This document shows, piece after piece, positions 531 to 38,665 of a stretch of 38,665 bases of DNA. This DNA is from Spirogloea muscicola. Lineage: Eukaryota > Streptophyta > Zygnematophyceae > Spirogloeales > Spirogloeaceae. Position 1 is the stretch's first letter, and every line of letters begins with the position of its first letter. The notes beneath the pieces were generated by a model. The model was not told where the DNA came from. It was given only the letters and a program-made list of their open reading frames with translations, and searched no databases. The position numbers were made by a program, and so were the translations under genes. The DNA lies in contig WELB01000203.1 of NCBI GenBank assembly GCA_009602725.1, positions 170,197-208,861 on the forward strand, in the 5' to 3' direction.

Positions 531-599
531 AGAATGGGATGCATTATTCGGTGCTCAGTGTGGCCCTCAATTACCATCTCAATGGCTCGGCAATTCACA

Positions 600-17349: not shown

Positions 17350-20300
17350 GTGGCTCTCCCAACGAAAGTACCCAATGGGGGAAAGCGAAGAGAGAGAGAG
17401 AGCGAGAGACGCTTTCAGTAGGAAAATGCGTGTATTAAGAGATGGGGAGGCCATGTGTGGCCAAGTACAAAGGCAAGCACATTGGACAAATGTACGTCAC
17501 CTGCTGCTGCTGCTAAGCTGACCCGCTCAGTAACCACGAGTCAGCACATAGAGGTCGCTAGCTGACGCTCGAATACCGGACGGCAATTGACTAGCTCTTG
17601 TGCCAGCAGCTAAGGCTCGACCAGCTTTCTGATGCAGAGCATACGCCTGAGCTCGTTGCAGACAGGTTGACACTCGACGTCGCAGAAATGACAGATAGGC
17701 TGCCGGCATACCCATCTGGGCTGGGAGCATATCCTCGCGTCGTGCATATTCCAGACTCGCTATGTTCTCGAGTAGGGTATGGAAGCGAGGACCCAAGCAG
17801 CCGAAAGTGTCGATTGCGGCCGGGAGGAGGTGGTCACTGCGGGGGTAGTCTGAGTAGTGTCGGAGCTTTTTCTGCTCAGCACCTCCCACTGCGTGGCCAG
17901 CAATGTGTGTGGAAGCGGAACTCTTGTATGCCTCAGTCACCACCACATCAACCAAAGCTCGTGGGCCTCCGCCAGGTTGTACACCCACAATGTCCAGGGT
18001 GCGACGGTGATGGCCTCCCTGGGAATCCGTGGTGATGGGCATTACATTGCTCACTTCAACGATGGCGCGGTAGCCGGCGTCGCGCATCAAGCCCGCCAGG
18101 GCGTCCCGTAGGAGATTGTGGACGCCCACCACCTCAGGGCCTGTGGGACACCGCAGCATGTGGGTGGCTAGGTCTCCGCCCTCCGTACGGAAGCCACACT
18201 CACACTGAGTTACTCCAATCAGGCAGGTCGGGGGCAGGCCCAGGAACAGCTGGAGAAGCGTCCGGAATGCTTCAGGGCTGATTTTGAAAGCGTTGTGGAT
18301 TGCGTGTGTGGTGAGCCAATCCGTTGCCCCAGGCGTTGCGAGCGATGTGAGACGTGCCAGACTCCTTGGATTGGTCTTGATATCCGGCATCGTCCTCAAC
18401 GCCTTGCGACGCTCGTCCTCAACTGCCGCAACGAGTCTGGCCTGTGCCGCTTTGTCTGGTGCTTGAGCAAGCGCTGAGAAGGGGGTGAGGAGGGGTTGTA
18501 GGGACGGGAAGGAGCCGAGTGCTGACTCCCGGATGCTCCTCAGTTGTACTTGGAATGCCAAGGAGCCTTCCTCCACCTCGGCTGCAGGGCCGGCCAGGCA
18601 AGGGAAGCGCAAGGGAAGAAGGGAGGCAACCTGGTGCCAGCAACCGAGAAAGGCTGCCTGCGCCGTCTGTTCAAGTGACCGGCAGCCCAGGCCGCCCATT
18701 CGTGTGGGAAGGGATGCCTGCAGGGAGGATGAAGGTGAGGGGAAGGATGGGTGTTGAATCAGGGAAGCCAGGGTTTGCCGGAGGGAGGTGTCGAACTCCT
18801 TGTACAGCTCGCCCACCATGTCCGTTGGGGCGACTGTCCGCTGCAGGTAGCCAGCTCGTTGACCGATGCAGCGAGTAAGGATGGCCAGCGCCAGCTGCGG
18901 ATCTCCGAGGAGGGGAAGGGAGGGAAGGGGGGCAAGGTGTTGCTGCAGGCGTTCACGCAAGTCCTCCGCAATGTGGGATGGTGTGCCAAGGGGAACTTTG
19001 AGAACAGCCAGCCCATTGGCAGGGGTCTGGCAGCCTGGTGGGAGCTGGAGGTTGGTGGGGAGGGGGCGTGGTGACCATGCCACGTTCTTGGTGGGGCAGA
19101 CCCGCAGGCCCATTGTGCTCAGTTCGTGTACGAGCAAGGGATAAGCCGCCATGACTTCTGACGGTGGGCCGACGATATGTGTGTCGTCTGCATAGGAGGG
19201 GAAGAGGAGGTTCGGGTGCAGGCTTTGGGTGCGCCGTAGTGCTCGGGAATGTGCCAAGGCGAAAAGTATGGGGCTGAGGGGATCTCCCTGGCGTGTGCCA
19301 GTTGTGGACCATAAGGTCGTCCAAGACTCCTCCGAACGCCACAGCAGCCGCCCTGGCCGGCCATAGGCCATGAGGAAATAGGGGATTAAGGAGGGGAAGT
19401 GATCACGCAGCTCCTCCATGATGGCGTTGCGCTCCACAGTGTTGAATGCATTGGCTATGTCCAATCCAAGGACCATGTGTGATGGGTTGACATCCAGCGC
19501 TGCGCGGATCCCGTGGACGAGGGCCTCTGCCCCGCAGGACATGCCAGCACCAAATTGGTGGGGTGCAAAATGGGTGGACAGCTGGGACTTTAGCTCGCCG
19601 CACAAAGCCTTGGTCACCAGCCGCATTATTACTTCTGTCATGGCGATGGGCCTGACACCACCTGACGGCTTGGCCAGGGCCAGCAGGTGGCTGGAGTTGA
19701 GAGCGTCGGCGATGCGGGGGGGGATGGTGGCTCTGGTGATGTGCCGGCAGGTGGAGAGGAGCAGAGAGAAGCTTCTTTCGTCTCCATTTTGGAAGATGTC
19801 CCGTAGGTGCTCGAAGAGCCATCCAGAAGGGCCTCCAGACACCATTCGGGGGGCTTTGGTGAGGGCCGTGCGGAGCGCATCTGCTGAAAGTTCAAGAGGA
19901 GTGGGGAGCTCGCCAACCCAGGGCTCAAGAGGGTGCTGAGGAGGAGGATGCAGCTGGCGCAAGGTGGCTTCAGTGGCCTCATTGTTTGCTGCCAAGGGGT
20001 CGGGGCAGAGGGCCTGAGCGGCTCGAGAGAGCTCTCCTGCTCTGCCAAAGCGTCTTGCACGCGCTAGGTTGCCAATCATGGACTGTTGAGAGGGCTGGTT
20101 GCGGGTGCCTCCACGTGCACGTCGTTCTGAGAGCGCGACCCGAGCGGCTGCTGCACGCTGCTGAGCCAGCTCCTCCCACTTGCCGCTGGCGAAGCGAGCC
20201 AATCTGTCCTGAAGGCATTTGCGGCCACCAACGCCAAAGGAGGGAAGAGGGCCAAGCACGAGCTTGGGGAAGAGCAGGTACAGCGCCCAGGCCGCCTCGT

Positions 20301-21400
20301 CCAGAGGGTCAGCTTCCACGCGTGAGAGGATGGGCGTCAGCACCTTGCAGCACCCACGTCGTGCCCACTTGGGAATGTGGCGGAGGTTGTGGAGCCCGTC
20401 GGGGATGAGGAGGGGAAGGAGGTCCACTGTTGCTGCCCAGTGCCAGCTCTCGGGAGAGGGAGGTGGTGGAGGACGGGCTGAGCCCGGCAGGTGCGACGTT
20501 GCTGCCTGCTCTTCGCGGTTTCGTTGGTTCTGGCATGAACGAGCATGGACTGGCAATCCTCTTGGGCGGTAACGGCGCTGGCAGCCCGGACAGGGGACCC
20601 GCGTGGCTGGGGCTTCTCCGAGGCCAGTGCGGGCTGGGCGCTGTTGAGAAGAGCGGCCCTGCCGACGGCGACCGGGTCCAGGGCGGCTTCCGGCTTGATG
20701 ACAGCTTTCCACAACCCGCGCAGGCGGCGGCGGAGGTAGAGGTAACAGAGGAGGTAGAGGGAGCAACGGTGGCGGCTCCGGAGCGGGCACTGGGGGATGA
20801 ACTGGAGAGTGCAAGGGTGGAGCTGGGGGGGGAGAGGGACGGAGCAGAGCCAACAAACTCAAAGGCCGCCAGGTGGGGGAATCACTTGATCGTGGTGGGC
20901 TGACGACAATGCCAACTCGCGGGTCCATGTTCGGAGTTTCGGAGTCTGCATCCGAGGTGGCCGAGCTTGGATGTGCAAGCAGCTGGGCTTGCTCGACAGG
21001 CGCAGACACTCCGACGCCAAGGAACTCGGGCTCCGGTGTCGACGTTGATGTCGTGGTCGCCACAGGCGTGCGCACAATCTGAGGGCTGCGACCCTCGCTC
21101 GCGGCGGCCTCCGCACCCGCTGGAGCAGGGGGAGGGAGAGGAGCTGGAGGGGCCGCTGGGAGGATGGGCAGGGTGGCCCCTGACGCAGTGGCGGCCCTCG
21201 ACGCAGCAGTCGTGCTGCGGGTGCCGTAAGAGCGAGCGGCGCGCCGAAGCGAAGAGCTGCGCGAGCCGCCTCGGCTCTTAGCAGCCCCCAGCATGGCGTC
21301 GGGGCCGGCGGGGGCGCTGGCGCACGCGAGTCAGCGGGCAGCGGACGGCGGCGGCGGCGGCGGCGGCCGCGGACGGCGGCGGGGTGGGTGGGGAGCCGTT
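17350..21400 (-). mobile_element. full-length LINE-A non-LTR retrotransposon (RLE type)
   Basis: A complete single-ORF element with a GGC-rich 5' leader (21295 to about 21400). Its 3' UTR contains TGCTTGCCTTTGTACTTGGC and the hairpin GGCCA..TGGCC (17449-17462), and ends near a CT-rich tract (about 17390-17410). The same 3' end occurs at 925-1125 and 1335-1500, and part of its ORF at 9310-9449. I could not identify a target duplication, so the outer limits are approximate. Confidence 0.85.
17527..21294 (-). CDS. LINE ORF: zinc finger, reverse transcriptase, restriction-like endonuclease (1255 aa)
   Basis: This single protein would carry out target-primed reverse transcription. An N-terminal Pro/Ala/Ser-rich region leads to a CCHC-type finger (C235, C238, H250, C254, in CPGCQRRYRPRGLPVHARSC). 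Reverse-transcriptase blocks follow: GGVRPIAMTEVI (about 545-556), LGLDIANAFNTV (609-620), TRQGDPLSP (667-675) and FPSYADDTHIVG (698-709), with the catalytic Asp pair at 703-704. The C-terminal part has CxC-x11-H-x3-C (1031-1049), then a PD-(D/E)xK-like nuclease: LDIVG (D1101), ALVDVVVTEAY (D1116, E1121) and a later Lys near 1142. It ends DLYVLTRGY. No apurinic-type endonuclease is seen, so the order is that of early-branching RLE LINEs (R2/NeSL-like). The frame is intact for 3.7 kb and all catalytic motifs are present. Confidence 0.93.
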   Translation of the reverse strand: MLGAAKSRGGSRSSSLRRAARSYGTRSTTAASRAATASGATLPILPAAPPAPLPPPAPAGAEAAASEGRSPQIVRTPVATTTSTSTPEPEFLGVGVSAPVEQAQLLAHPSSATSDADSETPNMDPRVGIVVSPPRSSDSPTWRPLSLLALLRPSPPPAPPLHSPVHPPVPAPEPPPLLPLPPLLPLPPPPPARVVESCHQAGSRPGPGRRRQGRSSQQRPARTGLGEAPATRVPCPGCQRRYRPRGLPVHARSCQNQRNREEQAATSHLPGSARPPPPPSPESWHWAATVDLLPLLIPDGLHNLRHIPKWARRGCCKVLTPILSRVEADPLDEAAWALYLLFPKLVLGPLPSFGVGGRKCLQDRLARFASGKWEELAQQRAAAARVALSERRARGGTRNQPSQQSMIGNLARARRFGRAGELSRAAQALCPDPLAANNEATEATLRQLHPPPQHPLEPWVGELPTPLELSADALRTALTKAPRMVSGGPSGWLFEHLRDIFQNGDERSFSLLLSTCRHITRATIPPRIADALNSSHLLALAKPSGGVRPIAMTEVIMRLVTKALCGELKSQLSTHFAPHQFGAGMSCGAEALVHGIRAALDVNPSHMVLGLDIANAFNTVERNAIMEELRDHFPSLIPYFLMAYGRPGRLLWRSEESWTTLWSTTGTRQGDPLSPILFALAHSRALRRTQSLHPNLLFPSYADDTHIVGPPSEVMAAYPLLVHELSTMGLRVCPTKNVAWSPRPLPTNLQLPPGCQTPANGLAVLKVPLGTPSHIAEDLRERLQQHLAPLPSLPLLGDPQLALAILTRCIGQRAGYLQRTVAPTDMVGELYKEFDTSLRQTLASLIQHPSFPSPSSSLQASLPTRMGGLGCRSLEQTAQAAFLGCWHQVASLLPLRFPCLAGPAAEVEEGSLAFQVQLRSIRESALGSFPSLQPLLTPFSALAQAPDKAAQARLVAAVEDERRKALRTMPDIKTNPRSLARLTSLATPGATDWLTTHAIHNAFKISPEAFRTLLQLFLGLPPTCLIGVTQCECGFRTEGGDLATHMLRCPTGPEVVGVHNLLRDALAGLMRDAGYRAIVEVSNVMPITTDSQGGHHRRTLDIVGVQPGGGPRALVDVVVTEAYKSSASTHIAGHAVGGAEQKKLRHYSDYPRSDHLLPAAIDTFGCLGPRFHTLLENIASLEYARREDMLPAQMGMPAAYLSFLRRRVSTCLQRAQAYALHQKAGRALAAGTRASQLPSGIRASASDLYVLTRGY

Positions 21401-21418
21401 CAATAAGTAGGGGGCGAT

Positions 21419-21512
21419 GAGTGATTCTCCTGTAGCTCTTTGAATTTTGTCCATTCTTTTGTGGCTGGCTTCTGCCAGCCCCTCTCTTCTATGGGCGAGC
21501 TCATTCTCTTTC
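21419..21512 (+). mobile_element. 94-bp LINE-B-like 3' tail with 13-bp target duplication
   Basis: It is flanked by AGTAGGGGGCGAT at 21406-21418 and 21513-21525. Inside are TTTGTCCATTCTTTTG, the hairpin GGCTGGC-TTCT-GCCAGCC and ATGGGCGAGC, the LINE-B 3' UTR pattern. The exact flanks fix both ends of the inserted unit. Confidence 0.8.
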
Positions 21513-21609
21513 AGTAGGGGGCGATAGCTGTGATTGGGAAAAGGAATGAAGAGAAGGTCGAAGGCGCCAGGAAAGCCCTAAAGCACCTTTCTTTTCCGCC
21601 GCACTCAGG

Positions 21610-21677
21610 CTCCCTCAGACTCTGTCCATTCTTTTGGGCTGGCCTTTCCCAGCCACCAGTCAATCTGGCCGCGCTTC
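21610..21677 (+). mobile_element. LINE-C 3' tail
   Basis: CCCTCAGACTCTGTCCATTC, the hairpin GGGCTGG..CCAGCC and CCAGTCAATCTGGCCGCGCT: a truncated LINE-C 3' UTR on the plus strand, next to an older LINE-B tail that starts at about 21678. Confidence 0.65.
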
Positions 21678-22012
21678 CTTGTCTTTTTGGGTTGGCTTTG
21701 CCAGCAGAAGAAGAAAGTGCTCGCCCATTGAGAAAAGGGGCTGGAACAACCAGCCCGAAAAAGAATGAACAGAGTACGAGAAGGGGGCCAGGGGAAGCGC
21801 TAAGTAACAGAAACAAAGCTGCTACGAGACACTCAGTAACCCCTGCTAAGCAGCCGCAGATCAGAGATGCTGGGCTCCTGGAAGTGGGTCCCCTGGCCAG
21901 AGCCAGAGGCAGCAGCGAGGGCTCTGCCGGCACGAAGGTGCAGCGCCCGGGCCATGGACCTCTGCCAGCCTTTGCCAGCCCCTCTTCTCAATGGGCGGGC
22001 ACTTTCATCTAA
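21678..22012 (+). mobile_element. old LINE-B tail split by a nested insertion
   Basis: The halves 21678-21705 and 21971-22012 join into a LINE-B-type tail: TTGTCTTTTTG, hairpin GGTTGGC-TTT-GCCAGCC, then CAATGGGCGGGCACTTTCAT. TTTGCCAGC is present at both break ends (21697-21705 and 21971-21979), so the intervening copy inserted at the hairpin loop. Confidence 0.7.
21706..21970 (-). mobile_element. LINE-B 3' end nested in an older tail, 9-bp target duplication
   Basis: The minus strand carries LINE-B C-terminal codons (related to the VHLRAGRALAAASGSGQG region), a stop, and the 3' UTR with GGGCTGGTTGTTCCAGCCC. It is flanked by TTTGCCAGC. It is nearly identical to the copy at 31383-31586 over about 200 bp, so both are probably recent. 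Confidence 0.75.
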
Positions 22013-22516
22013 AGCACAGCGCGACTGAAGTGGCTAACCGGAAACTGCACACAGCAACCCAAGTGGCCACTGGGTGCTCAATGTCATCTAGCCAGACAAG
22101 AAACGTGAACTTGAACTATGGTGATAGCTGACTAATGGCCAATCGCTGTTCTGGCCGACGGGTAATGTCTTGGGGGGGGGACATTCGGCTCCGCTTCCGG
22201 AATGGCCATGCGGGTCATCCCGCCACGGCGGACGAGCGGTCCGACGTGGAGTCCTTTAGCGGGCATCTCCTGCCACGGTGGAGGGGAGCACCTGCCACGC
22301 TGGCGGCTGGCAACGGTTAGCTGGATGAATAGACGTGGCGCCCGGGCATTCGTCGAGGCCGCCTGCCCGGCAGCTTCCTAATAAATGTGTATCTGCCCCT
22401 CAATATGCTTACCTCCGTACTTTAGCCATTCATGCCCTCCATTCATCACTTAATACACACTCCATTCTCAGCGCCGCCACTGGCAGCCATCGGCCTCGGC
22501 GGCAGACGCGGCGGCA

Positions 22517-22552
<36 letters not shown>

Positions 22553-23246
22553 TCACTGCGCAAGCTCGTACTCGCCCCGCCGTCAGCCGGGAGCCACCTC
22601 ATCGGCCGGGGAGCGAGACGGTGCTGGCTGAGGGGCCTGGCAGAAGCGGCAGCGGCAGCAGCGGCAGCCCGTGGCCGAGCCTCAAGCTGCGGGGCGCCAG
22701 TTGCTGGCTTAGACGGAGCCGCTGTTGTGGCATCAAGCGGTGCGGCGACGCGGCTCGACCTCTCACGACAACCGCTGCCAGTGTCCTTGGAAGCTGAATT
22801 GGACGTGCAAACCAGGGACACACGCTAGTCCGTGCCAGCCCGGGGGATCCGGGCAGCCGAGGGTTTCACGGAGCAGCCGCCTTCTTCTGCTTTCACCACA
22901 GCAGACACTCTGCGTGAAGCTGCTCATCGGTAATGCCCCTTTGCTCGCAGGATTGGTTCAAATCCCTGTGAGTGGCTGCTGGTCAACTGCTAGTCAGATA
23001 CTTGAGAGGCTAAGGATGTCAAATCGTTGCTGGCCGCTGGCGGCCTGCGGCATGCTCATGGCAGGCTTCTCTTTCACATACAGCTGCACTCGTCCTCTTG
23101 CATCTGCGATAAGGCCTGAAAAGGCATGCAAATACTCATTTTCTTATCAATCTTAGGCCTTCTCCTTTCTCAGGTGGCGTTGCTTGTCTTGCTCAGGGAG
23201 GAAATGAGCGTGCAGTGTCCGGCCCCGTGACAAAGTCGCGCCGCCC
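22013..23246. other. upstream region of the PLAC8-type gene with CGG repeat
   Basis: No gene is recognised. A CGG/GGC repeat at about 22498-22550 and further GC-rich low-complexity sequence to 22800 keep many frames open without protein-like content. It may contain the promoter and 5' UTR of the gene starting at 23247. Confidence 0.4.
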
Positions 23247-25508
23247 ATGGCGGATCGTGCACAAGCGCACTCGCTCGACAGCGGGGAGCTGAGCCCAGGG
23301 CTGATGGGCGCGGCTGCCGCCGGGCCTGCCTCAGAGCCGGGGACGTCAAATGTAGCACCCTTTGATAAGGAGCCCATATTTAGCGCCAATTCGCTGTCTA
23401 GGAGCTCGTCCGTGCGCGTTCAAGACCTTCTTCTGCGGCCGTCCACTACCATAAAGGTCAGCTCCTGCAGCAACATTGGCCTAGCCTTGCTCCTATCTAG
23501 CTCAGTCAGTGCTTCCAACTTGGTCTTGACTTTCAGCTAAGAAGAGCCAGGCGGTCATGGCTCAGCATCCTCCCTGCTTTGGTCTCTATGCAGATCCTGG
23601 CCGAGAAGCGGGAGGAGGTGTCGGCCCAGGTGCCCTCAGAGCGTTTACCGCTCAGCGAAGGCATCCACCTCCCTGCCGTTGGCGACGTGCTGTGGGCAGA
23701 CCTTCGGCGGGACTGCTGGGCATGGATTCAGCATCCCAAGAACATGCTGCTCTTTCTATGGATCGTGGCCGTTGCTGTCTCCGGCGGCATCCTCTTCCTT
23801 GTGATGACTGGCATCCTCAACTCGCAGATCCCTCGCAAGAGCGACCGCAATGCGTGGTTTGAGACATGCAACCAGGTCAGCAGTGCCCTTTTCCCACCTC
23901 CTGTGGCCTCCTGTCAAGGATCGCCCAAAATCTCAGCCCTCCAGAAGGAGCTGACTCTGTATGAACTTCTTGTGACTATGTATACTTACCTTGGAGGTCA
24001 AGGTGATCTGTCTGAAATTGACTTGGTGACATACGGAAAGTGCTGTGCCTGCCATGCTACAGTGTGCGACCCCGTTGCTTACTGCGCTCATGTTTCTTGG
24101 GAGACGCAGATCCTCAATGGACTGTTTACGCTGCTGTGCGTGGTGCTCCACCCAGGACGGGTGCAGCACGCCATCTGGCTGCACAATTGGCAACCCAAGG
24201 ACGTGCAGAAAATGCGCAAGATCTACTGCAAGCACTGCACACGGAAGCCCAATGAGTGGTATCACATGCTAGTTGTCGTTTTCCTCCTCAATCTCAATTG
24301 TGTCTCACAGGTGAGTGCGTGATTCCTCTATGAGGCTCTGTGTTAGCTGTTTACACGCCATTTTCGTGCTGGGCATGCCTTTGCATCACTGTTCACTTGA
24401 AGGACAATGTACATGATTTATCTTGCCTCTCTTGGTTTGCTTGCTGAGCTTCTTCTTTTAGAGGTCAACGCGGTGGTCCTCCCCTTAAATCTTGTCAACT
24501 CATATAAGGAAGGGATGGGAGCCCTTGTTGTGTCCACGACTCTTGAGCAACTCTTCAGCTAGACAATGCAACAATCACTGCGCAGAAGCTGACGCAGAAT
24601 GTTTGCTCGTCACTGCTTTCTCAGTATTGCCTAGCTGGGCTGAACTGGAGCTACCCGCGCCACACACGGCCAGCAATTGGCGTTGCTCTGTGCCTGTCTG
24701 CCGCCATCGGGTCCGCCGCAGCAGCAGGGTTGTACAACATCCTTAGCCCGCTGGGCAGAGAGTACGAATTCGACGGCAATGCGAGCGAGCGAAGCATGAG
24801 CCCCTGGCTAGAGCGCCAGGCGACAATGTCAGATCACGGCAAGATCGTGGACAAACCTGAGTGGCGCGGCGAGGCTGTGCCAGCAACTGGCGCGTCACCC
24901 TGCTTTCCTCCCTCTGCCTTGTCTGCGTGTTTGGCATTAATGCGGAGCGGCTGGGCTGGGGTAACAAGTTCCTCCACATGGTCACCTTCGTGCTCTTTCT
25001 CTCCGCGCCCTTTCTCATCTTCAACCTCGCCGCTATAAACCTGGATGGGAATGCCAGAACTGCGCTGGGCGTGACAGGTATCATCCTGTCGCTCTTTGGA
25101 GTGCTTTATGGCGGCTACTGGCGCATCAAGACGCGGGTGCGATACCGGCTGCCAGCGTACACGTGGTGCTGTCGTAGTGCCAACGCCAGCGATTGCACGC
25201 TCTGGCTGTTCTGCAGCTGCTGCGCACTGAGTCAGGAGGTACGGACTGCGGAGTACTACGAGGTTGGCGACCACAAGCTCTTTGTCAAGCAAGCCAAACC
25301 AGTGGGAGAGATACCTTTAGGGCAGCAACCTAGCAGCGACAATGGGCCCATGCCTTACAAGGAGGACACTAGAAAAGCGTCAAAGCATCCGCCGCTGTTC
25401 ACAATACCATCAGCTGACCCAGCACTCCTCGAGGCCTATGCGCGAGACCAGCACCTGGAAGCTGGCCAGATCGAAGCGCCGCTTCGCATGCAGCCGCTAC
25501 ACCGCTAG
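23247..25508 (+). CDS. DUF2985 / PLAC8-domain membrane protein
   Basis: A multi-span membrane protein of the plant-type DUF2985-PLAC8 family, whose biochemical role is not established. Exons: 23247-23456, 23594-23875, 24110-24310 and 24625-25508, all joined in phase 0. Exon 2 has ILFLVMTGILNS. Exon 3 has HPGRVQHAIWLHNWQPKDV, KHCTRKPNEWYHML and LLNLNCVSQ. Exon 4 has RPAIGVALCLSAAIGSAAAA, GLYNILSPLGREYEFDG, FGINAERLGWGN, APFLIFNLAAINLDG, FGVLYGGYWRIKTR and the PLAC8 segment DCTLWLFCSC then ALSQEVRTAEYYEV. In exon 4, PEWRGE and the following ASNWRVTLL lie in different frames. One nucleotide is missing near 24871-24876, so the gene is frameshifted or the assembly is wrong there. The start ATG has a good context (GCCGCCCATGG). 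TGTAA motifs follow the stop at 25530 and 25562. Confidence 0.88.
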
Positions 25509-25529
25509 AGAAGTGTCTGGGGCTAGTTT

Positions 25530-25566
25530 TGTAAGCATACCCTGTACAGCAGTAGGTTGTCTGTAA
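25530..25566 (+). terminator. candidate TGTAA polyadenylation signals
   Basis: TGTAA occurs at 25530-25534 and 25562-25566, 22 and 54 bp past the stop codon at 25508. TGTAA is the usual polyadenylation motif in green algae. The spacing suits a short 3' UTR. Confidence 0.5.
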
Positions 25567-26156: not shown

Positions 26157-26470
26157 GAGAAGAGAAAGCGTGGCCAGATTGACTGGTGGCTGGGAAAGGC
26201 CAGCCCAAAAGAATGGACAAGGTCTGAGGGAGCTTGAGTGCGAACGACTAGGACTAAGACATCAGCCAGGGAACGCTCAGTAACCTCTAGACAGGAAATG
26301 CAGATCCGAGTAGCTAGCTGGTGGAAAGACGTCGCCCTGACGGAAGCCGGAGGCCGCCGCCAAATCTCGGCCTGCGCGCAAGTGAACCGCGAAGGCGAGG
26401 GACCGCTGCATCGAGACGGCCAAACGCACACGGAACACCTGAGCGAGGGACCCGGCTACGTTGAAGCAAA
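26157..26470 (-). mobile_element. LINE-C 3' end with C-terminal coding sequence
   Basis: The minus strand encodes GSLAQVFRVRLAVSMQRSLA, then VHLRAGRDLAAASG and SYSDLHFLSRGY-stop. This parallels the LINE-A C-terminus (RVSTCLQRAQAYALHQKAGR ... DLYVLTRGY). The 3' UTR has GCGTTCCCTGGCTGATGTC, CCTTGTCCATTCTTTTGGGC and the CCAGCC hairpin. The upstream part is missing. A hairpin (AGCTCACTGCT / AGCAGTGAGCT, 26471-26496) abuts the truncated end. Confidence 0.75.
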
Positions 26471-26500
26471 AGCTCACTGCTCGAGAGCAGTGAGCTCTTC

Positions 26501-26611
26501 AGAAGAAAGTGCTCGCCCATTGAGAATAGGGGCTGGAACAACCAGCCCGAAAAAGAATGAACAGAGTACGAGAAGGGGGCCAGGGGAAGCGCTAAGAAAC
26601 AGAAACAAAGC
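26501..26611 (-). mobile_element. 111-bp LINE-B 3' UTR copy with 8-bp target duplication
   Basis: It is flanked by AGCTCTTC at 26493-26500 and 26612-26619. It contains only the 3' UTR from the GTTTCTTAGCGCTT region through the hairpin to GGGCGAGCACTTTC. It is inverted relative to the copy at 26656-26769. Confidence 0.8.
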
Positions 26612-26619
26612 AGCTCTTC

Positions 26620-26815
26620 CCTCAGACCTTGTCCATTCTTTTGGGCTGGCCTTTCTCGTAGCAGCTTTGTTTCTGTTACTTAGCGCTTCCCCTGGCCCCC
26701 TTCTCGTACTCTGTTCATTCTTTTTCGGGCTGGTTGTTCCAGCCCCTATTCTCAATGGGCGAGCACTTTCTTTCCCAGCCACCAGTCAGTCTGGCCGCGC
26801 TTCCTCCTTCGCACA
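26620..26815 (+). mobile_element. LINE-C tail interrupted at its hairpin
   Basis: The halves 26620-26655 (CCTTGTCCATTCTTTTGGGC, TGGCCTTTC) and 26775-26815 (CCAGCCACCAGTCAGTCTGG) make one LINE-C tail. It is split between the two arms of its hairpin by the LINE-B copy at 26656-26769, with CTTTC duplicated at the break. Confidence 0.75.
26656..26769 (+). mobile_element. LINE-B 3' UTR inserted in the LINE-C hairpin loop
   Basis: A 114-bp plus-strand LINE-B 3' UTR between CTTTC at 26651-26655 and CTTTC at 26770-26774. With the minus copy at 26501-26611 it forms an almost perfect inverted pair of about 105-bp arms around a 44-bp spacer. Confidence 0.75.
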
Positions 26816-29659: not shown

Positions 29660-30693
29660 TGTCTTGAGAGTTGCTGGTATCCTACCACCTATGTCAAAGC
29701 AAAGTCACATTGCAACCATGCTCAGCTGATTGAAGTACGGCCCTCAGCCATTGCCAATAGCTGCGATGGCTACACTGGGCAATACACATTGTGTGTGATG
29801 CGGAAGGCACACAGCCTTCAGCTGTCTCATTAGCAGGCAGGTGTGCTCTTGCAGCTCATCCAGCATATAACATGAATACATGATGAGTAGTTGTGTGGGA
29901 TGGGATTGAGCACAGACCACAGTCTGAGTTGAATCTGCTTCAAGGCTTCAGCAAATCAGACCCACGAGTTGTGATACCTGCTGTGTATGCTGCAGAGCCT
30001 CTCATCAACTTGCTGACCAGTGATGGTGGATACAGCATAGACCCAGGGATATAGTTACCATTGTAGGGAGGGCGAGGTTCAACCAGCAGCTGCTGCGTGA
30101 GTAGGCTGTGAATGAAGTAGATCAATGTCCATGCTGAGTCCACAACAAGAGACACCGCAAAGTTTAGCCGTAGTAAGGGTTCTTAAGCACCATATTCTCA
30201 GCTCCTGCAAGAAGGGTCAAGCTTTTGGGGTTGTCTGGGTTCTTTAGGATTCACCGACGGGGAGGAAGGGCTGGCATCTGCCACGAACAACACGCAAGGC
30301 AGCAGGACTTCTCTAGAACTGCTGAAGCCGCTTTTTCCTCAAAGCCCAGGGCAATTTTGACTCGCCACTGTTAGCGAGCCGCCCCACAAGGCCCAGCAAG
30401 GTGCCTCTCATCGAACTCAGCTGACCCTGCCATTCACGAGGCCCAAACTTTGCTCTACGTTTTCCAACTATATTCGACAACTTTGGACCTTGTCCATCCT
30501 TCTGTGGGCTGGGAAGTGAGCTCTTCCAAAGGGGGCGGGATCTGGCTATAGACAGGGGTACAGTTACCCGGAGACTAGTTTCTCTGACCTGCGCTGCTCG
30601 ACAGGGAATGTTGAGCACCAAGTAGCCACTTGAGTCGCAGTGAGCTTCAGCACCTTCTGCCCTTCGAAACCTGTCCATTCTCTTTCTCGACTC
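29660..30693. other. 3' flank of presenilin, no gene recognised
   Basis: A minus-strand frame at 29940-30155 has Pro/Tyr-containing sequence (EPRPPYNGNYIPGSMLYPP) but no partner exons or recognisable family. A LINE-like phrase (GTCCATCCTTCTGTGGGCTG) is at about 30490-30510. Confidence 0.35.
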
Positions 30694-30888
30694 TGCCTGA
30701 ACAATGTATTGGCTTGAATTGGCCTCCCTTTCAATTCATGCGCCCCGCGCGCCTTCTCTCTCTTTCTCTGGGCTGGCCACTCACAGCCATCGCCATCTTC
30801 TGAAAGAGTCTTTGTAGTGCTGAGAGAAGGCGCGCGGGGCGCATGAAATTAAAAGGAGGCCAACTCAAGCCGACACATTGTTCAGGCT
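30694..30888. repeat. inverted repeat, about 67-bp arms and 61-bp spacer
   Basis: The left arm 30694-30760 (starting GCCTGAACAATGTATTGGCT) is matched by its diverged complement at 30822-30888. The spacer includes GGGCTGGCCACTCACAGCC, another LINE-type hairpin. A third copy of the arm (right-arm orientation) is at about 37935-38002, next to a LINE remnant, so the arm is probably LINE-derived. Confidence 0.7.
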
Positions 30889-30894
30889 GAGAGA

Positions 30895-30965
30895 AAGCGC
30901 GGCCAGATTGACTGGTGGCTGGGAAAGGCCAGCCCAAAAGAATGGACAAGGTCTGAGGGAGGTTG
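30895..30965 (-). mobile_element. 71-bp LINE-C 3' tail with 11-bp target duplication
   Basis: It is flanked by AGGCTGAGAGA at 30884-30894 and 30966-30976. The minus strand reads CCTTGTCCATTCTTTTGGGC, the hairpin and CCAGTCAATCTGGCCGCGCT. Confidence 0.8.
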
Positions 30966-31382
30966 AGGCTGAGAGAGGTCAGCCCCGCCCCAGAGATAAC
31001 CGTGTCGAAAAGAAGAAAGGCAACTATCCTTGTGGACGCCGGGCACGAAGCCCGAGGGCACGGCAGCCGCCGGATGCCCATCGGACGGCACACAGCGACG
31101 CGGCACCGGCCCCACGTGGTGCTTGACCATCTCGCACGGCCGAGCGTTCCCCTCAGGGCCTGTTTACACTGGGTCACCGGGTCGCGTCGACGGGTACGTG
31201 CCGCGCGGTGTATGGACCGGCCGGCTTTACAGTCTTGCGGGCCGGGTCATGGTCACTCGCCACGGAGGCGCCACATCGGACGCTGACGAGGACTCATTTC
31301 GGGCTGCGTTAAGGAGAAAACGCGCGCGTTTGCCACGAGGGCGGCCGGAACTGTGCCCTCCTCCCGAGGAGGGCCCAGTTTT

Positions 31383-31586
31383 GAAGAAGAAAGTGCTCGC
31401 CCATTGAGAATAGGGGCTGGAACAACCAGCCCGAAAAAGAATGAACAGAGTACGAGAAGGGGGCCAGGGGAAGCGCTAAGTAACAGAAACAAAGCTGCTA
31501 CGAGACACTCAGTAACCCCTGCTAAGCAGCCGCAGATCAGAGATGCTGGGCTCCTGGAAGTGGGTCCCCTGGCCAGAGCCAGAGGA
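31383..31586 (-). mobile_element. LINE-B 3' end inside the Harbinger element
   Basis: Nearly identical to the copy at 21706-21910 in both the 3' UTR and the last codons. Only the 5' truncation point differs, which suggests two recent independent insertions. Confidence 0.75.
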
Positions 31587-31589
31587 CAA

Positions 31590-31650
31590 TAATGTAACGA
31601 CCTTTATGTTCTGACCCGTGGTCACTCATCTTGACAGCAGGTGACGAAGC
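31590..31650 (+). mobile_element. short LINE-A 3' fragment
   Basis: The plus strand reads NDLYVLTRGH, followed by GACAGCAGGTGACG, resembling the LINE-A stop-codon region and the start of its 3' UTR. The hairpin is missing. Confidence 0.5.
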
Positions 31651-31704
31651 AGGACCACTTGGTGCCGTAGCGAGACGAACATCGTCCAGAATGGGGCGAT
31701 GGCT

Positions 31705-31937
31705 GTGAAAGAGGAGAAAGGGCTCGCCCATTGAGGATAGGGGCTGGACAAGCCAGCCCAAAAAAGAATGAACAAAGAACGAGAAGGGGGCCAGAGGAAG
31801 CCAGAGGAAGCGCTAAGAAACCCAAGCACACAAAGAAAGAAAGCAGCTACAAATTACTCAGTAACCCCTGCTAAGCAGCCGCAAATCAGAGAGGCTAGGG
31901 TCCTGGAAGTGGGTCCCCTGGAAGTGGGTCCCCTGGA
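31705..31937 (-). mobile_element. diverged LINE-B 3' end inside the Harbinger element
   Basis: The minus strand has the LINE-B 3' UTR with hairpin GGGCTGGCTTGTCCAGCCC and internal small duplications (GGAAGCCAGA twice; GGAAGTGGGTCCCCT twice). It sits where the C-terminal part of the transposase would be expected. Confidence 0.65.
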
Positions 31938-33317
31938 CCCCCCCCGTCCACCCCCCCCTTGGACCCCAAGGACGCTGCCCGGCCTGCCCGAATTGAGACA
32001 GCTGGCACCCCCTTCCCTCCAAAATACACAGATTTTCTAATAGAAGGTTCCCCGACCCTGCTCCCCTCCCGCCCCCCTCCGGCAGCTCTGGCCTGCAGCG
32101 CTGTCATAGCGCCATCGCGATCGCCAAGGCCGCGCAGTCCCAGGGCAACTGCAGCTGGTGGTCGCCATGGCAGCAGCTGACATACCGCCTGTAGTCTGCA
32201 ACAACGGCAACATTGCGGAGGATAGGCTGCATCCCCGAGCAGACAGTAGTCTCCAAGTCTCCCGCACCGCTGGCCGACCCTGCTCTGGTTGAAAGTCGTG
32301 CAGTCGTGTACGCTGCCGCACCGGCCGACGTCGAAGGCCCAGATCTTCCGGTTCGCGTCAGCGACCACCTGCAGGACCACAGAGTGGTGGTTCTTTCTAT
32401 TATAGTACTTGGGACGATCACTTGGAGCTATGATGGGGATGTGCGAGCCGTCGACTGCGCCGACGACGTACGGGATGCCTGCCAGCTCCTCAAATCTGGC
32501 GGCCATGCCGAGCATCTCCCTGTGCGTCGGCCAGTTGACCTGCTCCAGCAGCAGGTTGTCTTTGATGGCCTCCAGCACCTCCCTAATGATAATGCTCGCC
32601 GTGCACTCCGCTATCCCGAAAAAGATCGGATGTGGCCCTAATGTAGCTTCCGGTTGCCAGGCGGTGCAGCGTGATCGCAACCATCGCTTCCACCGGCACA
32701 GCTGCTCTGAAATCCGTGTCCCGCTTCTCGATCGTGCCGCCGAGAGCCCGGACCAACTTGTCATAGACTCTGCGCGACACTCTCACGCTCTTCCAGAAGT
32801 CCTGCTCGGTGAAGTCGACCTGCAGCTGCCGGAGCCAGCCGGTCGTCTGGGTGGAGTTCCACAGGAGGCGCGGTGCTCTCTCCTTCTTCCCCTGCAGCAT
32901 CATCAAGGCCACGGCACCCTTGAAGTCGAACTGCGGCAGCAGTTCGCCTCCGCCTCCGCCTGAGCCTCCACCTCCGCCTCCACCTCCGCCTCCACCTCCG
33001 CCTCCGCCTCCGTCTCCGCCTCCACCTTCGCCGGGCACAGCTGCCAGCGGTCCAGGACGGCTATCGTGATGCAGCAGATCCGCCTCCGCTCGGGGCCCAT
33101 GCCTGCAGGCGTGGTCGGCAACGGGAGGGGAGAGCGTGCGCCTGCGGGGGCGCTCGACCAGGCGGCGGGAGGCGGCACTGCTGCCGGGGTTTGAAGCTGC
33201 TGCCCTAGCGCGCCGGGCAGCCGTCCGACCTGGCGGGGCTTGGGAGGTGATACCGCACGTGCAGGTGGCCTCGGCCTCCGTGGCGGTGACCAAACCCTTT
33301 GATCCCGCGGTCAGCAC
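31938..33317 (-). pseudogene. broken PIF/Harbinger transposase (DDE_Tnp_4 / HARBI1-like)
   Basis: Harbinger transposases cut and paste DNA with a DDE catalytic triad. An upstream frame holds a poly-Gly stretch, then DFWKSVRVSRRVYDKLVRAL and AITLHRLATGSYIRATSDLF. The catalytic part in the next frame begins FGIAECTASIIIREVLEAI and has YVVGAVDGSHIPII (first Asp), YYNRKNHHSVVLQVVAD, FDVGRCGSVHDCTTF (second Asp) and YCLLGDAAYP. The frames are offset by one extra base in an A5/T5 run at 32619-32623. After DAAYP the normal region with the third acidic residue is not recognisable; repeats and LINE insertions follow. Both breaks mean this copy cannot encode a working enzyme. Confidence 0.85.
32945..33035. 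repeat. CCTCCG/CCTCCA short tandem repeat
   Basis: About 15 units alternating CCTCCG and CCTCCA, within the 5' part of the transposase frame, where one minus-strand frame reads it as poly-Gly. Confidence 0.8.
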
Positions 33318-33399
33318 GTGCGTGACCGCGCGACCCAGTGTAAATAGGCCCTCATTGTCAATGGCTTAAGCGACCCTGCCGCTGCCCTCGAGCATATGC

Positions 33400-34549
<1,150 letters not shown>

Positions 34550-34690
34550 TCTTTGTATACGAGTGTAGCTGCTTTGTTTCTTCTTGTGCTTGTTCTTCTT
34601 AGCGCTTCCCCTGGCCCCCTTCACGTACTTTGTTCATTCTTTTTTGGGCTGGCTTTTCCAGCCCATATCCTCAATGGGCGAGCCCTTGCT
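34550..34690 (+). mobile_element. LINE-B 3' UTR copy
   Basis: GTAGCTGCTTTGTTTCTTCT, CTTAGCGCTTCCCCTGGCCC, GTTCATTCTTTTTTGGGCTG, the CCAGCCC hairpin and CAATGGGCGAGCCC on the plus strand. It is truncated just 5' of the stop-codon region. Confidence 0.7.
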
Positions 34691-35269
34691 TCCATCTTCG
34701 CTGCCGCAACCCCGGCGTACGACCTCTGCGGCTCTATTCCCTTTAATCGCCAGGCTCTGCACCGTTGGCCAGTTACTCAGCGAGCTCCCTGCCCGCCATT
34801 GCTTGCCCTTGCGTCGCCCCGCTGGAGCTCACAGCCGTCCTCTGCTCGTTCGCCACCTCTCACGCCATTGCAGCAGGTGTTCTCTCCGAGGGCTTGCACC
34901 ATTGATCTTTGCTTTAGCATAGTCGGCTCTGAGGTCCCCAGTCTGCAGTGCGTCTGGCGGCATGCCATTGGAGTTTTGTAGTCACGAATCACTCCCGTGT
35001 CAGCTTCAGCGTACACGCCAGTCAGGTTGAATAGTCTGGGTATGCGAAGCTGATGGGCTGATGGCCACGGCCTGATGCTGCACATCACATTGTAGGGATG
35101 TTATCGTCTGCACATCTTTGTCACTGTTGCTTACCAAAGGCTCCACTCATCGTTTTGAATTGTAACTGTAATGAATGTAGGGGCTGCGCATTCACAACCA
35201 CGTCGGTTGCTGGGAGAAGATATAAGCAGAGACTGCAAGCCAAGCTTTCTCTACAGCAGAGCTTCGGGA
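34691..35269. other. no gene recognised
   Basis: Between a LINE-B tail and a weak ORF. It could hold upstream exons of that ORF, but none is convincing. Confidence 0.35.
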
Positions 35270-35619
35270 TGACAGCATGGCATTTGTGGAACACTACTAC
35301 TACACCACTGAAGATACCTCCAATAGCAGTAGTTGCTCTGGTTGCACGGCCAGAATCATCACTTGGGTTTTTGTGGCAGTTGGTTGTCTTGCTGCAATTA
35401 TCAAAATTCATTTTCCTACGGAGATGTGCGCTAAGAAGGGCCAGGGAGAAGGACGCACAAGTTGCTGCTGTATTGGCTGCTCAGAACCCAGACATGTTCC
35501 CAAAGGCACCAGTTACATATCCTCCAGCAGCAGGATATCCAGTTCCTCCTCAGCCTGCTTACGGCCCCACTTATCCACCTAAGTACGGGTTAACCATGAC
35601 AGATGCATCATCCAGTTGA
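35270..35619 (+). CDS. hypothetical exon: hydrophobic segment plus Pro/Tyr-rich tail
   Basis: A plus-strand frame ending at 35619 reads a hydrophobic region (VVALVA, LGFLWQLVVLLQLSKFIFL), then LRRAREKDAQVAAVLAAQNP, then a Pro/Tyr-rich tail (TYPPAAGYPVPPQPAYGPTY). The tail looks like real protein, as in PY-rich membrane-associated proteins. Another frame over the same bases also looks plausible (FVEHYYYTTEDTSNSSSC, then a TM-like stretch at about 35350-35420), so a hidden intron or frame change is possible. No family is recognised and the 5' end is unknown. Confidence 0.35.
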
Positions 35620-37804
35620 CTACGCTGCTAATTTTCCACCCTCAGGAGCACCCCCAAGCTAGACCCCACAGCTGTCAGCTTCCTGAGGCAGGCCTTTTCA
35701 AGGCACCTGACACAAGAGAGGCAAAGGTATATATTCAAGCAAAATAATGGTTGCTGGTATATGAGCTTGCTAATTGATTTAAGACGGATCAACGCATGGA
35801 TACGGTTTAGCAGTTCACAAGACTACGTAAATAAGCAGCGAAGAGACACTTGCTTTGAATGGTCATGTCAACGCCCTCATTGAATTTGACCAGCTTCAGA
35901 CATGGTCACTTTGCAGAAAAGGCTTGGAAACCCTTTCACAACATGCTCCTTGCATTATCTCAACCCTTATCTTCACTGTTGTGGGCCAACTCACGGTCGA
36001 TGGGCATTGACAGGCTTACATTCAGAGATGTGGGCCATTGGCTATCTACTTCGCCAAAAACCTCAAGGCACGAGTGTTGTGTGCATCAAGGGGCCTTGCT
36101 TGCAGCTTAGTTGCTTGCAGTTTCTTGTCAAGCCTGCCTGCACTCTGCAGCAGTGATACTGGGCTACATTGTCACGCATGCAGAGGATGATGACGAGCCA
36201 CGTGTATGGCATCTGTTGTTCTAGGCCATAAGCTCGAAGCCCGTCCTGCTTAAACAATCAATCTTCTAACCAATGTTTGGTTAGCGAAAGGGCTGTACTT
36301 TAAATTACACATTGTCAATCAGAGGCGCCCAAGGGCCATACTGTGCAGGAAGAGTGCTTCGACTAGGATTCCTATGCAAAGCCAGTAGGGATGGCGCATG
36401 CGCCTACAATGGGTTGAGAGAAGTGAGCTAGAAGCCTCAACTAGGGTTTCAGGCGCGAGCCTTCACTTGTTCCCCAACTCCGACTACAAACAGCCCAAGC
36501 CTCTGACAGTCTTGCACTTACTCTGAAGACTGATAAGCCCCTCCCCAACTGCCTGACAGGGTGTTGGCCGCCAATCCCAGCTGCGTCCTTCTAGAAACAG
36601 AAGCGCGTATAAGGCAGCCCTGCTCTCGTGAAGTCCTGCTGCCCGACAGGAAATGTTCGTCAGTAGCTACACTGTGGCAATACATAAGCAACGGCATTGT
36701 TAAGCTCCTCCACAGAAGTCATATTCGCGTCCAGACCCAGCCAAGTCCCTTCACCGAGACCAAGGCGACCAGGGCTTGCTTATACCTACTTCTCGAAGTA
36801 CAACCGTGCGCTAATCTCAGTGACAGAACAATCGCGAAGACGCGGCCTTTAATAAAGCCCGTGCACGGCCAACGCATGTCTTAGCGGCTCACTTCAGAGG
36901 GCTTAGCGCTGCGAGGGTCCAACAGTTGGACGCTTGGACCCGAGGCACAATGATGTAGAAAGCAATTTGACTTAGAAAGACTTTGCAACGGGAGTGGAAT
37001 TCCAGATGCAGAGCACGCGGGCGGAGGCCCTCACTCCCTAGGTGAGTGGCGGCCCCGCTTAAAAGCCCAGACTTTGGTTGCATTGACAGCTGCGAGGCGA
37101 CGGCGAGGCAGTTATTTTGCCGCTAGCCAGGCCCCCTTTCAAGCGAGGTTACAAGGACAAAGCTCCTCCTTCCAGCAACAGCGGTCTCCTTACAGTTTCG
37201 TAAAAGTTTGTCTGGGGTCATGCAGCAACGGCAGCAAGGAATCTTGGTGCAACGCAAGCTCATCTTAACAAGCCACGTCAAAGTTGCAGAAGGCGAATGC
37301 TAAGCTTGGAGGCGAAGGCATGGCAAAGCAAAGAGTGGCCAATGTGTCCCCAGGTGTGCTCCTGTCGCGCCTGGCCGTGGCGTCTAACGGTGGCCCAGAT
37401 GCAGTCTGCAAACATGAGTCATGGAAGGGGCTTGTTGCAGCACATAGAGGCTTGTACAGGTGCCCAAGGGCACACCAAGGGTACAAATCGCGATAGGCCA
37501 GAGATGCGATGGAGGGACACTGCCAATCAGACGCCCCACATTGCTTCTCCATTTCTAGCAACTGGATTACACTAAGACGATCCGACCACCTTAGTAGACG
37601 TACGCGAGATGAGCCTTTTCCTTCAGCTACACAGAATGACGAACAGGCAGCCGAGCCCGCGACTGGGCGGCGTTTACTTCAATGCCTCTGTGTTTTGTGT
37701 ACAAAGTAATGGGCTGTGGCTGCTGAGAAGCCAGCCCAGAAACATGCAAGGTCTGAATGGGCCGAAAAGCGCTGAAACACATGAGCAAGCAAGTACCATG
37801 GAGG
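35620..37804. other. about 2.2 kb with no gene recognised
   Basis: Short frames only, none resembling a known protein, with mixed GC content. Near 37705-37735 GGGCTGTGGCTGCTGAGAAG and CCAGCCC look like the edge of a diverged LINE tail whose coding remnant follows. Confidence 0.4.
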
Positions 37805-38002
37805 ATGATCACTTAGTAACCTCTACTTGGCAGCCGCAAGTCAGGAAGACTAGCCGCCGGAAAGTAGTCCCCCTTGACGAAACCCAGAGGCTACAGCTAG
37901 AGCACGGCCAGCACGCAGGTGCAAGGCGTGGGGCGAGAGAAGGCGCGCAGTGCACATGAAATTGAAGCGAGGCCAATTCAGGCCAATACATTGTTTAGGC
38001 AG
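37805..38002 (-). mobile_element. diverged LINE C-terminal fragment
   Basis: The minus strand encodes LRAGRALAVASGFRQGG, then DLRLPSRGY and TAA, parallel to LINE-B/C ends. Just 5' of it lies GCGCGCCTTCTCTC and the arm sequence also found in the 30694-30888 inverted repeat. Confidence 0.6.
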
Positions 38003-38070
38003 AAAATGCAAAAAGTGCAAAGAATGCAGCGCAAAAGAATCTGGCTACATGAAATGACGCCCTATACTAG

Positions 38071-38415
38071 GAGGGCCAGAGGTGCCACAGAGCGTGGGGA
38101 GCCGTGCTGACGGGGGCCATGTCGACTCGACCTGTACCGCTTGTGGAGCTGCTAGAGGCGGGGAAGGAAGCAGCAATGGCAGGGGGGAGGGCGGGTGAAG
38201 GAAAGGAGGGCCAGAGGTGCCACAACGTGGGGGGAACCGTGCTGACGGGAGCCATGTCGACTCGATCTGTACCGCTTGTGGAGCTGCTAGAGGAGGTTGA
38301 GGAAGCAGCAATGGCAGGAGGGAGGGCGGGTGGAGGGAAGGAGGGCTGGAGGTGCCACAGACCGGGAGGAGCCGTGCTGACGGGGCCATGACGACTCGAC
38401 CGTACCGCTTGTGGG
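38071..38415. repeat. minisatellite, 135-bp unit, about 2.5 copies
   Basis: Units start at 38071 (GAGGGCCAGAGGTGCCACAG), 38206 and 38341, exactly 135 bp apart. The third stops near 38415. Units differ by a few substitutions and small indels. The 135-bp period is a multiple of 3, so several frames stay open, but the encoded sequence looks non-natural. Confidence 0.9.
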
Positions 38416-38421
38416 CGACGT

Positions 38422-38585
38422 CTTTCCGCCGGCTAGCTACTCAGACTTGCATCTCCTGACTAGAGGTTACTGAGCGTTCCCTGGCTGATGTCTTAGTCCT
38501 ACTCCTTCGTACTCCGGCTCCTTCAGACCTTGTCCATTCCTTTGGGCTAGCCTTTCCCAGCCACCAGTCAATCTGGCCGCGCTTT
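38422..38585 (+). mobile_element. LINE-C 3' end, first of a tandem pair
   Basis: Encodes DVFPPASYSDLHLLTRGY-stop, then GCGTTCCCTGGCTGATGTC, CCTTGTCCATTCCTTTGGGC, the CCAGCC hairpin and CCAGTCAATCTGGCCGCGCT. It is closely related to the minus copy at 26157-26470. Confidence 0.75.
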
Positions 38586-38665
38586 CTTTCCGCCGGCTAG
38601 CTACTCAGACTTGCATCTCCTGACTAGAGGTTACTGAGCATTCCCTGGCTGATGTCTTAGTCCTA
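38586..38665 (+). mobile_element. second tandem LINE-C copy, cut by window edge
   Basis: It restarts at the same codon region (TTTCCGCCGGCTAGCTACTC) 162 bp after the first copy and is nearly identical up to the edge. The shared start point suggests tandem duplication or head-to-tail joining rather than two random truncations. Confidence 0.7.

What the first reader, a model, noticed from the sequence alone, without database searches (positions are those of the whole stretch)
17449..38561. Three LINE subfamilies share a short 3'-UTR hairpin at a fixed distance, with different stem sequences
In LINE-A copies (17449-17462, 936-947, 1466-1478) the stem is GGCC(A)/(T)GGCC. In LINE-B (33431, 31423, 26727, 660, 34650) and LINE-C (26190, 21635, 38543) it is GGGCTGG / CCAGCC(C), with variants such as GGTTGGC-TTT-GCCAGCC that keep pairing. 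Where the stop is preserved, the hairpin lies about 65-85 nt after it. Stem identity changes while pairing is kept, as expected of an RNA structure recognised by the element's own reverse transcriptase. Stringent LINEs are known to use 3' stem-loops. The specific structure and its spread over these algal RLE elements is, as far as I know, undescribed.
Basis: partly seen in the sequence, partly recalled or inferred. Interest (0 to 1): 0.7.

Follow-up and report, generated by a model that had tools for sequence, protein, structure and literature searches.

The report
Conserved hairpin in LINE 3' tails
Related families of jumping genes in this alga-like genome end in much the same short RNA hairpin, probably the tag their own copying enzyme grips, as is known for other such elements; the claimed evidence that the stem changes sequence while keeping its pairing does not hold up here.

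Summary
The hairpins are real in LINE-B and LINE-C: GGGCTGG-N5-CCAGCCC in nine B tails, GGCTGG-CCTTTC-CCAGCC in C; rarely matched by shuffles in four of five B/C tails tested. They are LINE tails: LINE-A has an uninterrupted 1267-aa RT ORF, the C-termini of A, B and C are related, and 10 of 18 copies examined show 5-11 nt direct repeats like target-site duplications. B and C share the hairpin core (79% identity) but not the UTR before it (52%, shuffles 49%); within B the stem is invariant while loop and flanks vary. A conserved tail signal, most likely bound by the element's own RT.

The central inference fails. On 18 hairpin entries x 7 pairs, 18 pairs depart from consensus: 16 broken, one one-sided wobble, one two-sided wobble; shuffles do as well (356/500). 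LINE-A's GGCC hairpin is not clearly better than shuffles (97/300, 29/300) and the motif is barely commoner than chance (10 vs 7.6). Stop-to-stem distance is 56-98 nt. The variant GGTTGGC-TTT-GCCAGCC is an older tail split by a nested LINE-B copy. Ordinary stringent-LINE-like tail; new member of a known kind.

The parts
17527..21330 (-). LINE-A open reading frame, 1267 aa, reverse transcriptase; ends ...SDLYVLTRGY-stop
   Evidence: PF00078 RVT_1 E 9.9e-19; translation; RT region hits group II intron RTs (best E 2.9e-4) and R2 protein (E 7e-4) in PDB
17449..17462 (-). LINE-A copy A1 3' hairpin GGCCA-CACA-TGGCC, 64 nt after stop
   Evidence: 97/300 shuffles as stable
936..947 (-). LINE-A copy A2 3' hairpin GGCC-ATTT-GGCC, 56 nt after stop; copy about 907-1124 between repeats TGTGAAGG
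   Evidence: 29/300 shuffles
1466..1478 (+). LINE-A copy A3 3' hairpin GGCC-ACTTC-GGCC, 56 nt after stop; copy about 1308-1495 between repeats CACGAAA
   Evidence: not tested against shuffles
17518..17544 (-). second LINE-A hairpin, spanning the stop codon: CTGACTCG-TGGTTACTGAG-CGGGTCAG (A1)
   Evidence: 8/300 shuffles for A1, 1/300 A2, 40/300 A3; outer pair C-G in A1, U-A in A2, broken in A3
33396..34093 (-). LINE-B copy B1: degraded C-terminal coding (33528-34093, two frames) and 3' tail; hairpin 33430-33447
   Evidence: tblastn to the LINE-A ORF E 1.9e-18
31382..31586 (-). LINE-B copy B2; hairpin 31415-31432
31712..31921 (-). LINE-B copy B3; hairpin 31742-31759
21706..21969 (-). LINE-B copy B4; hairpin 21739-21756; nested in the hairpin of an older B-type tail, direct repeat CTTTGCCAGC at 21696-21705 and 21970-21979
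26501..26611 (-). LINE-B copy B5; hairpin 26531-26548; direct repeat AGCTCTTC
26656..26769 (+). LINE-B copy B6; hairpin 26727-26744; nested in the hairpin loop of C5, direct repeat CTTTC
34564..34692 (+). LINE-B copy B7; hairpin 34646-34663
457..538 (-). LINE-B copy B8; hairpin 491-508
629..707 (+). LINE-B copy B9; hairpin 662-679; direct repeat CTTTTCCT
21440..21513 (+). diverged B-type tail B10; hairpin about 21462-21481
17183..17241 (-). diverged B-type tail B11; two stem pairs broken
21683..21705 (+). 5' half of the older B-type tail (BE) split by B4; other half 21970-22014
26160..26477 (-). LINE-C copy C1 with coding end (...SDLHFLSRGY-stop); hairpin 26188-26206; direct repeat CTCGAGCA
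   Evidence: tblastn E 1.3e-5
38413..38588 (+). LINE-C copy C2; hairpin 38544-38562 with one inner pair broken
30895..30965 (-). LINE-C copy C3; hairpin 30917-30935; direct repeat of 11 nt
21600..21682 (+). LINE-C copy C4; hairpin 21636-21654
26611..26806 (+). LINE-C copy C5 (approximate ends), interrupted by B6 in its hairpin loop
357..396 (+). LINE-C copy C6, stub of about 40 nt truncated in the hairpin loop; direct repeat AATGCTTC
37690..37880 (-). fourth tail type (D4) with related C-terminus and TAA stop; hairpin GGCTG-N9-CAGCC from about 37737

Best explanation
The hairpin is the conserved core of the 3' tail of a group of related non-LTR retrotransposon families (B, C and a looser D group). 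The tail runs CATTCTTTT, then the hairpin, then about 20 variable nt, then a pyrimidine end close to GCxCTTTCTTC. The element's own RT most likely binds this tail on its mRNA and starts target-primed reverse transcription from the pyrimidine end. Shown: the tails, the kinship of the families, 5'-truncated copies with direct repeats at their ends, and conservation of the core. Inferred: binding by the RT, and that pairing rather than sequence alone matters. LINE-A probably carries its own, different tail signal.
For: B1 vs C1: last 120 coding bases 67% identical (shuffles 49%), UTR before the core 52% (shuffle mean 49%, sd 3.7), core 79% (51%, sd 5.8). The core's limits were set by the shared motif itself, so this contrast is partly circular; but the unguided self-comparison also found B-C matches at the core (643-679 with 21619-21654; 21447-21480 with 26188-26220 and 30917-30949; each E 7e-4) besides the coding end. 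Within B, 14 of 14 stem columns invariant against 40 of 58 flank and 2 of 5 loop columns, Fisher p about 0.01; with near-identical copies collapsed to six, 14/14 vs 42/59, p 0.016 (no tree correction). B1-B3 and C1 hairpins beat shuffles. Direct repeats at 10 of 18 copies examined. Terminal GCxCTTTCTTC-like end: 16 of 24 window matches within two mismatches lie at the ends of B, C and D1 tails, 8 elsewhere. A 3' stem-loop is required for retrotransposition, and bound by the ORF2 protein, in zebrafish ZfL2-1/ZfL2-2 (PMC4176376, abstract and passages).
Against: No covariation. In C the outer pair is lost, in D one to three of the seven pairs. LINE-A does not show it convincingly. All copies lie in one 38.7-kb window; no further genomic copies could be collected.
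Confidence: 0.58

Rival explanations
1. The core is conserved as a linear sequence motif (CATTCTTTT plus GGGCTGG...CCAGCCC as a protein-binding or RNA 3'-processing signal); the fold itself is incidental.
For: Conservation is by sequence, extends into the CATTCTTTT stretch, and 16 of 18 departures break pairs.
Against: The loop varies while both arms stay fixed in B; shuffles rarely give so stable a hairpin for B1-B3 and C1.
Confidence: 0.26
2. The hairpin is shared only by recent common descent or by exchange of tails between families, without function.
For: The nine B copies are 85-100% identical to each other; no covariation.
Against: B and C have diverged until the UTR before the core is no more alike than shuffles, yet the core is 79% identical (core limits set by the motif).
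Confidence: 0.13
3. The repeats are foldback or MITE-like DNA transposons, because several copies face each other (457-538 / 629-707; 26501-26611 / 26656-26769).
For: Inverted pairs in the self-comparison.
Against: B1 and C1 continue into coding sequence related to the LINE-A ORF; copies share a 3' end, have variable 5' ends, and B5, B6 and B9 have their own direct repeats.
Confidence: 0.03

Closest known systems
Stringent-type LINE tails of the L2 clade (UnaL2, ZfL2-1, ZfL2-2)
   Same: Hairpin near the RNA 3' end followed by a short terminal repeat; related families with their own tails (PMC4176376 abstract and passages; UnaL2 TGTAA repeats in PMC3747384 section 4.4).
   Different: Those are fish elements with experimental proof; here a different LINE group (clade not determined), no assay, and a CTT-like end.
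Monocot L1/SINE 3' hairpin (LINE1-1_ZM, ZmSINE2)
   Same: Short 3' hairpin conserved between families (PMC3747384 passages).
   Different: There compensatory mutations were reported and the stem varied while loop and flank nucleotides were kept; here the stem is fixed and the loop varies.
R2 3' UTR RNA structure
   Same: R2 proteins are among the RT-region hits in PDB; [quoted passage not shown]
   Different: R2 inserts in 28S rDNA (listing) and has a larger structured UTR (recalled); here targets are scattered and the structure is one small stem.
Green-algal RandI/Dualen LINEs and their SINEX partners
   Same: Green-algal LINE families with non-poly(A) 3' repeats (tables in PMC3747384).
   Different: No apurinic endonuclease domain was found by Pfam in the LINE-A ORF; species unknown; sequences not compared.

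Membership tests
Non-LTR retrotransposon (LINE) | Reverse transcriptase ORF | tested here: met
   RVT_1 E 9.9e-19 in 17530-21330(-)
Non-LTR retrotransposon (LINE) | 5'-truncated copies with constant 3' end and TSDs | tested here: met
   10 of 18 copies examined have 5-11 nt direct repeats at their ends; 8 (B2, B3, B7, B8, B10, B12, C2, C4) have no clear one; no chance control was run and the 5-nt one of B6 could be chance on its own
RLE-type LINE (R2/NeSL/CRE group) | C-terminal restriction-like endonuclease | tested here: inconclusive
   CxC...H...C and D...D motifs read by eye (recalled pattern); no Pfam hit there, only unrelated PDB hits at E 0.49 or worse, model pLDDT 41
Stringent-type LINE tail | Conserved 3' stem-loop | tested here: met
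   LINE-B and C yes; LINE-A near chance level
Stringent-type LINE tail | Pairing maintained by compensatory change (supporting feature reported for monocot L1 tails) | tested here: not met
   few sequences and an almost invariant stem, so low power
Stringent-type LINE tail | RT binds and needs the stem-loop | not testable with these tools
   needs biochemistry

The most novel reading that the evidence does not exclude
The tail hairpin has two roles: as RNA it is the RT's recognition tag shared by several families, and as DNA its pyrimidine loop and 3' arm are a preferred landing site for the same enzymes, so that new copies nest in the hairpins of old ones (B4 in an older B tail, B6 in C5).
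Probability: 0.08. Interest if true: 0.55.

Novelty: new member of a known kind. Interest (0 to 1): 0.3.

Why it matters
If the tail is an RT recognition signal, it extends stringent 3'-tail recognition to a further group of probably algal LINEs, gives a motif (CATTCTTTT-hairpin-CTTTCTTC) with which to find their truncated copies and possible SINE partners, and defines an RNA short enough for binding and RT assays. It does not open a new kind of mechanism.

Tried and rejected
Covariation of the stem across B, C, D: no support in this data set. An outer helix in LINE-B (columns 79-92 with 127-139): predicted, but no pair changed on both sides and some cells broken. Hairpin-shaped DNA as a general insertion target: ten sites, individual P 0.026, 0.046, 0.10, 0.11, 0.32, 0.36 and four of 0.98-0.99; two below 0.05, no combined test run, not convincing. 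Insertions into tail hairpins specifically: 2 of 10 sites, binomial P 0.005 (0.014 if 17 insertions are counted, a number I assumed in the script); the test was chosen after seeing the cases, so a lead only. B3 next to a 14-nt match to a D-type tail was not counted. Relatives elsewhere: none in viral contigs for the LINE-A ORF, by six short peptide patterns that reach close relatives only; the spaced tail pattern found 0 in viral contigs and, one base shorter, 10 bacterial contigs; a pattern with the 5' arm only gave 4 viral contigs. I take these 14 for chance pattern hits: the covariance model gives their best match 26 bits, below the B and C tails that built it (40-55 bits) but equal to the weakest D tails (25-29). 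So membership of D1, D2, D4 and D5 rests on context, not on score. In one search, 30 matches had E up to 5 and 22 had E below 0.001; 21 of these are the sequences that built the model and the other is the left part of C5. RLE fold: the model was too poor to search (mean pLDDT 41). No Rfam family at gathering score and no tRNA in the window.

Full report
What is there. The window is 38,665 bases with 57% GC; no genome is held for it. A 1267-aa ORF on the minus strand (17527-21330) has an RT domain (RVT_1, E 9.9e-19). Among solved structures its RT stretch hits group II intron and retron-type RTs first (best E 2.9e-4) and R2 proteins next (E 7e-4). The C-terminus has a CECG...H...C stretch and a D...D stretch that I recognise from memory as those of restriction-like endonucleases; no tool confirmed this. 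tblastn finds degraded C-terminal coding of LINE-B (33528-34093), LINE-C (26280-26435), another LINE-A copy (1007-1129) and a weaker stop-ridden stretch at 9181-9444. The ORF and the first three end in DL..L(S/T)RGY followed by a stop, and the DNA motif GGTTACTGAG, or one mismatch from it, marks that stop in A, B and C; a fourth type has GGTTACTAAG at 37812-37821.

The copies are LINE copies. B and C tails share a 3' end and have variable 5' ends. Of 18 copies examined, ten are flanked by direct repeats of 5-11 nt: B4, B5, B6, B9, C1, C3, C6, D1, A2, A3; eight showed no clear one: B2, B3, B7, B8, B10, B12, C2, C4. I ran no chance control for these repeats; that of B6 (5 nt) would be weak alone but is backed by its empty site. 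Within two mismatches, GCGCTTTCTTC occurs 24 times in the window: 16 times at the ends of B, C and D1 tails and 8 times elsewhere.

The hairpins. Nine B tails have exactly GGGCTGG-N5-CCAGCCC. C tails have GGCTGG-CCTTTC-CCAGCC with the outer G facing A. D tails keep 4-6 pairs around GGCTG...CAGCC. LINE-A copies have GGCC-N4-6-GGCC. Against 300 dinucleotide shuffles of each UTR, 22-nt windows as stable occurred 1, 0, 4 times for B1, B2, B3; 7 for C1; 115 for C2; 97 for A1; 29 for A2; 40 for D4; no other copies were tested. In the whole window GGCC-N3-6-GGCC occurs 10 times against a shuffle mean of 7.6. So the B and C hairpins are real; that of A is not clearly above chance by these tests, although GGCC arms are present in three diverged copies.

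Distance. Stop to first stem base: A1 64, A2 56, A3 56, B1 77, B2 76, B3 98, B4 76, C1 70, C2 70, D4 75. B3 has extra sequence in its UTR. The distance is similar but not fixed.

Conservation. For B1 against C1 the last 120 coding bases are 67% identical (shuffle mean 49%), the UTR up to the core 52% (49%), the core 79% (51%), the part after it 51% (45%). B1-D4 and C1-D4 cores are 71% and 73% with upstream UTRs at 52%. The core's limits were set by the shared motif, so the contrast is partly circular. The unguided self-comparison, however, found the same segment between B and C copies (three matches at E 7e-4: 643-679 with 21619-21654, and 21447-21480 with two C copies), besides the coding end. 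Within B, 14 of 14 stem columns are invariant, 40 of 58 flank columns and 2 of 5 loop columns; with near-identical copies collapsed to six, 14/14, 42/59, 2/5, p 0.016 for stem against flanks. These tests ignore the tree.

Covariation. RNAalifold on nine B tails: 0 of 19 pairs changed on both sides; the seven stem pairs never vary. On 21 tails (18 distinct: B1-B11, C1-C4, D1-D5 and BE's left half): one cell changed on both sides, a figure reached by 356 of 500 shuffles. On a hand-curated set of 18 entries standing for 22 tails, with BE and C5 read without their inserts: 1 two-sided (a T-G wobble in D1), 1 one-sided (BE), 16 broken. The statement that stem identity changes while pairing is kept is therefore not supported. 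The sequences are few and the stem hardly varies, so this is absence of support, not proof against structure.

GGTTGGC-TTT-GCCAGCC does not occur contiguously in the window. At 21689-21705 the sequence reads GGGTTGGCTTTGCCAGC and then runs into the 3' end of copy B4. The direct repeat CTTTGCCAGC recurs at 21970-21979 beyond B4; joined, the empty site is a B-type tail that aligns with B2 over 63 columns. So a LINE-B copy sits in the hairpin of an older tail. B6 likewise sits in the loop of C5, whose joined sequence matches C1 with three mismatches over 69 bases. These two of ten repeat-flanked sites lie in tail hairpins; the expected number is about 0.1, but the test was made after the fact, and hairpin-shaped targets in general are not convincingly enriched.

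A second LINE-A hairpin. In A1-A3 a 7-8 bp stem spans the stop codon: CTGACTCG-TGGTTACTGAG-CGGGTCAG in A1, TTGACCCG...CGGGTCAA in A2, a 7-bp version in A3. As stable a 29-nt window appears in 8, 1 and 40 of 300 shuffles; the outer pair is C-G in A1, U-A in A2 and broken in A3. A fourth, diverged LINE-A fragment at about 31590-31650 seems by eye to lack its 3' arm.

Mechanism. The most likely reading is a stringent-type 3' tail bound by the element's own RT. In zebrafish L2 elements the stem-loop is required and the ORF2 protein binds it (PMC4176376, abstract and passages). In monocot L1 elements and SINEs a hairpin with compensatory changes was reported, and green-algal LINE/SINE pairs with shared tails are listed (PMC3747384, passages and section 4.4). 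Chlamydomonas relatives are reported to hold L1 and Dualen LINEs (PMC8226300, passages).

Novelty. Searches in print: over open-licence full texts only. No listed title or abstract start described this tail; most listed papers were not opened, and Repbase and subscription papers could not be searched. The kind of thing is known; the particular tail may be undescribed.

Noticed in passing
17518-17544 (-), 995-1021 (-), 1393-1417 (+): Hairpin spanning the LINE-A stop codon; its outer pair is changed on both sides between two copies and broken in the third.
   Followed up: partly
21683-22014 and 26611-26806: LINE-B copies nested inside the 3' hairpins of an older B-type tail and of a LINE-C tail, with direct repeats CTTTGCCAGC and CTTTC.
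   Followed up: yes
357-396: A LINE-C stub of about 40 nt with an 8-nt direct repeat, truncated in the hairpin loop, as if reverse transcription stopped at the 5' arm.
   Followed up: no
9181-9446 (+): Another degraded LINE-A-like fragment.
   Followed up: no
31895-32782 (-): DDE_Tnp_4 transposase fragment (Pfam PF13359, E 8e-14) between LINE-B copies.
   Followed up: no
30682-30897 and 37935-38003: Inverted repeat with arms of about 70 bp and a third copy of the arm elsewhere.
   Followed up: no
38069-38414 and 38421-38665: Tandem duplications, one with a period of about 135 bp and one of 164 bp made of LINE-C tail sequence.
   Followed up: no
23501-24322 (+): ORF with DUF2985 (PF11204, E 4e-23), a probable host gene.
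   Followed up: no
4922-4961: 40-bp inverted repeat, 95%.
   Followed up: no
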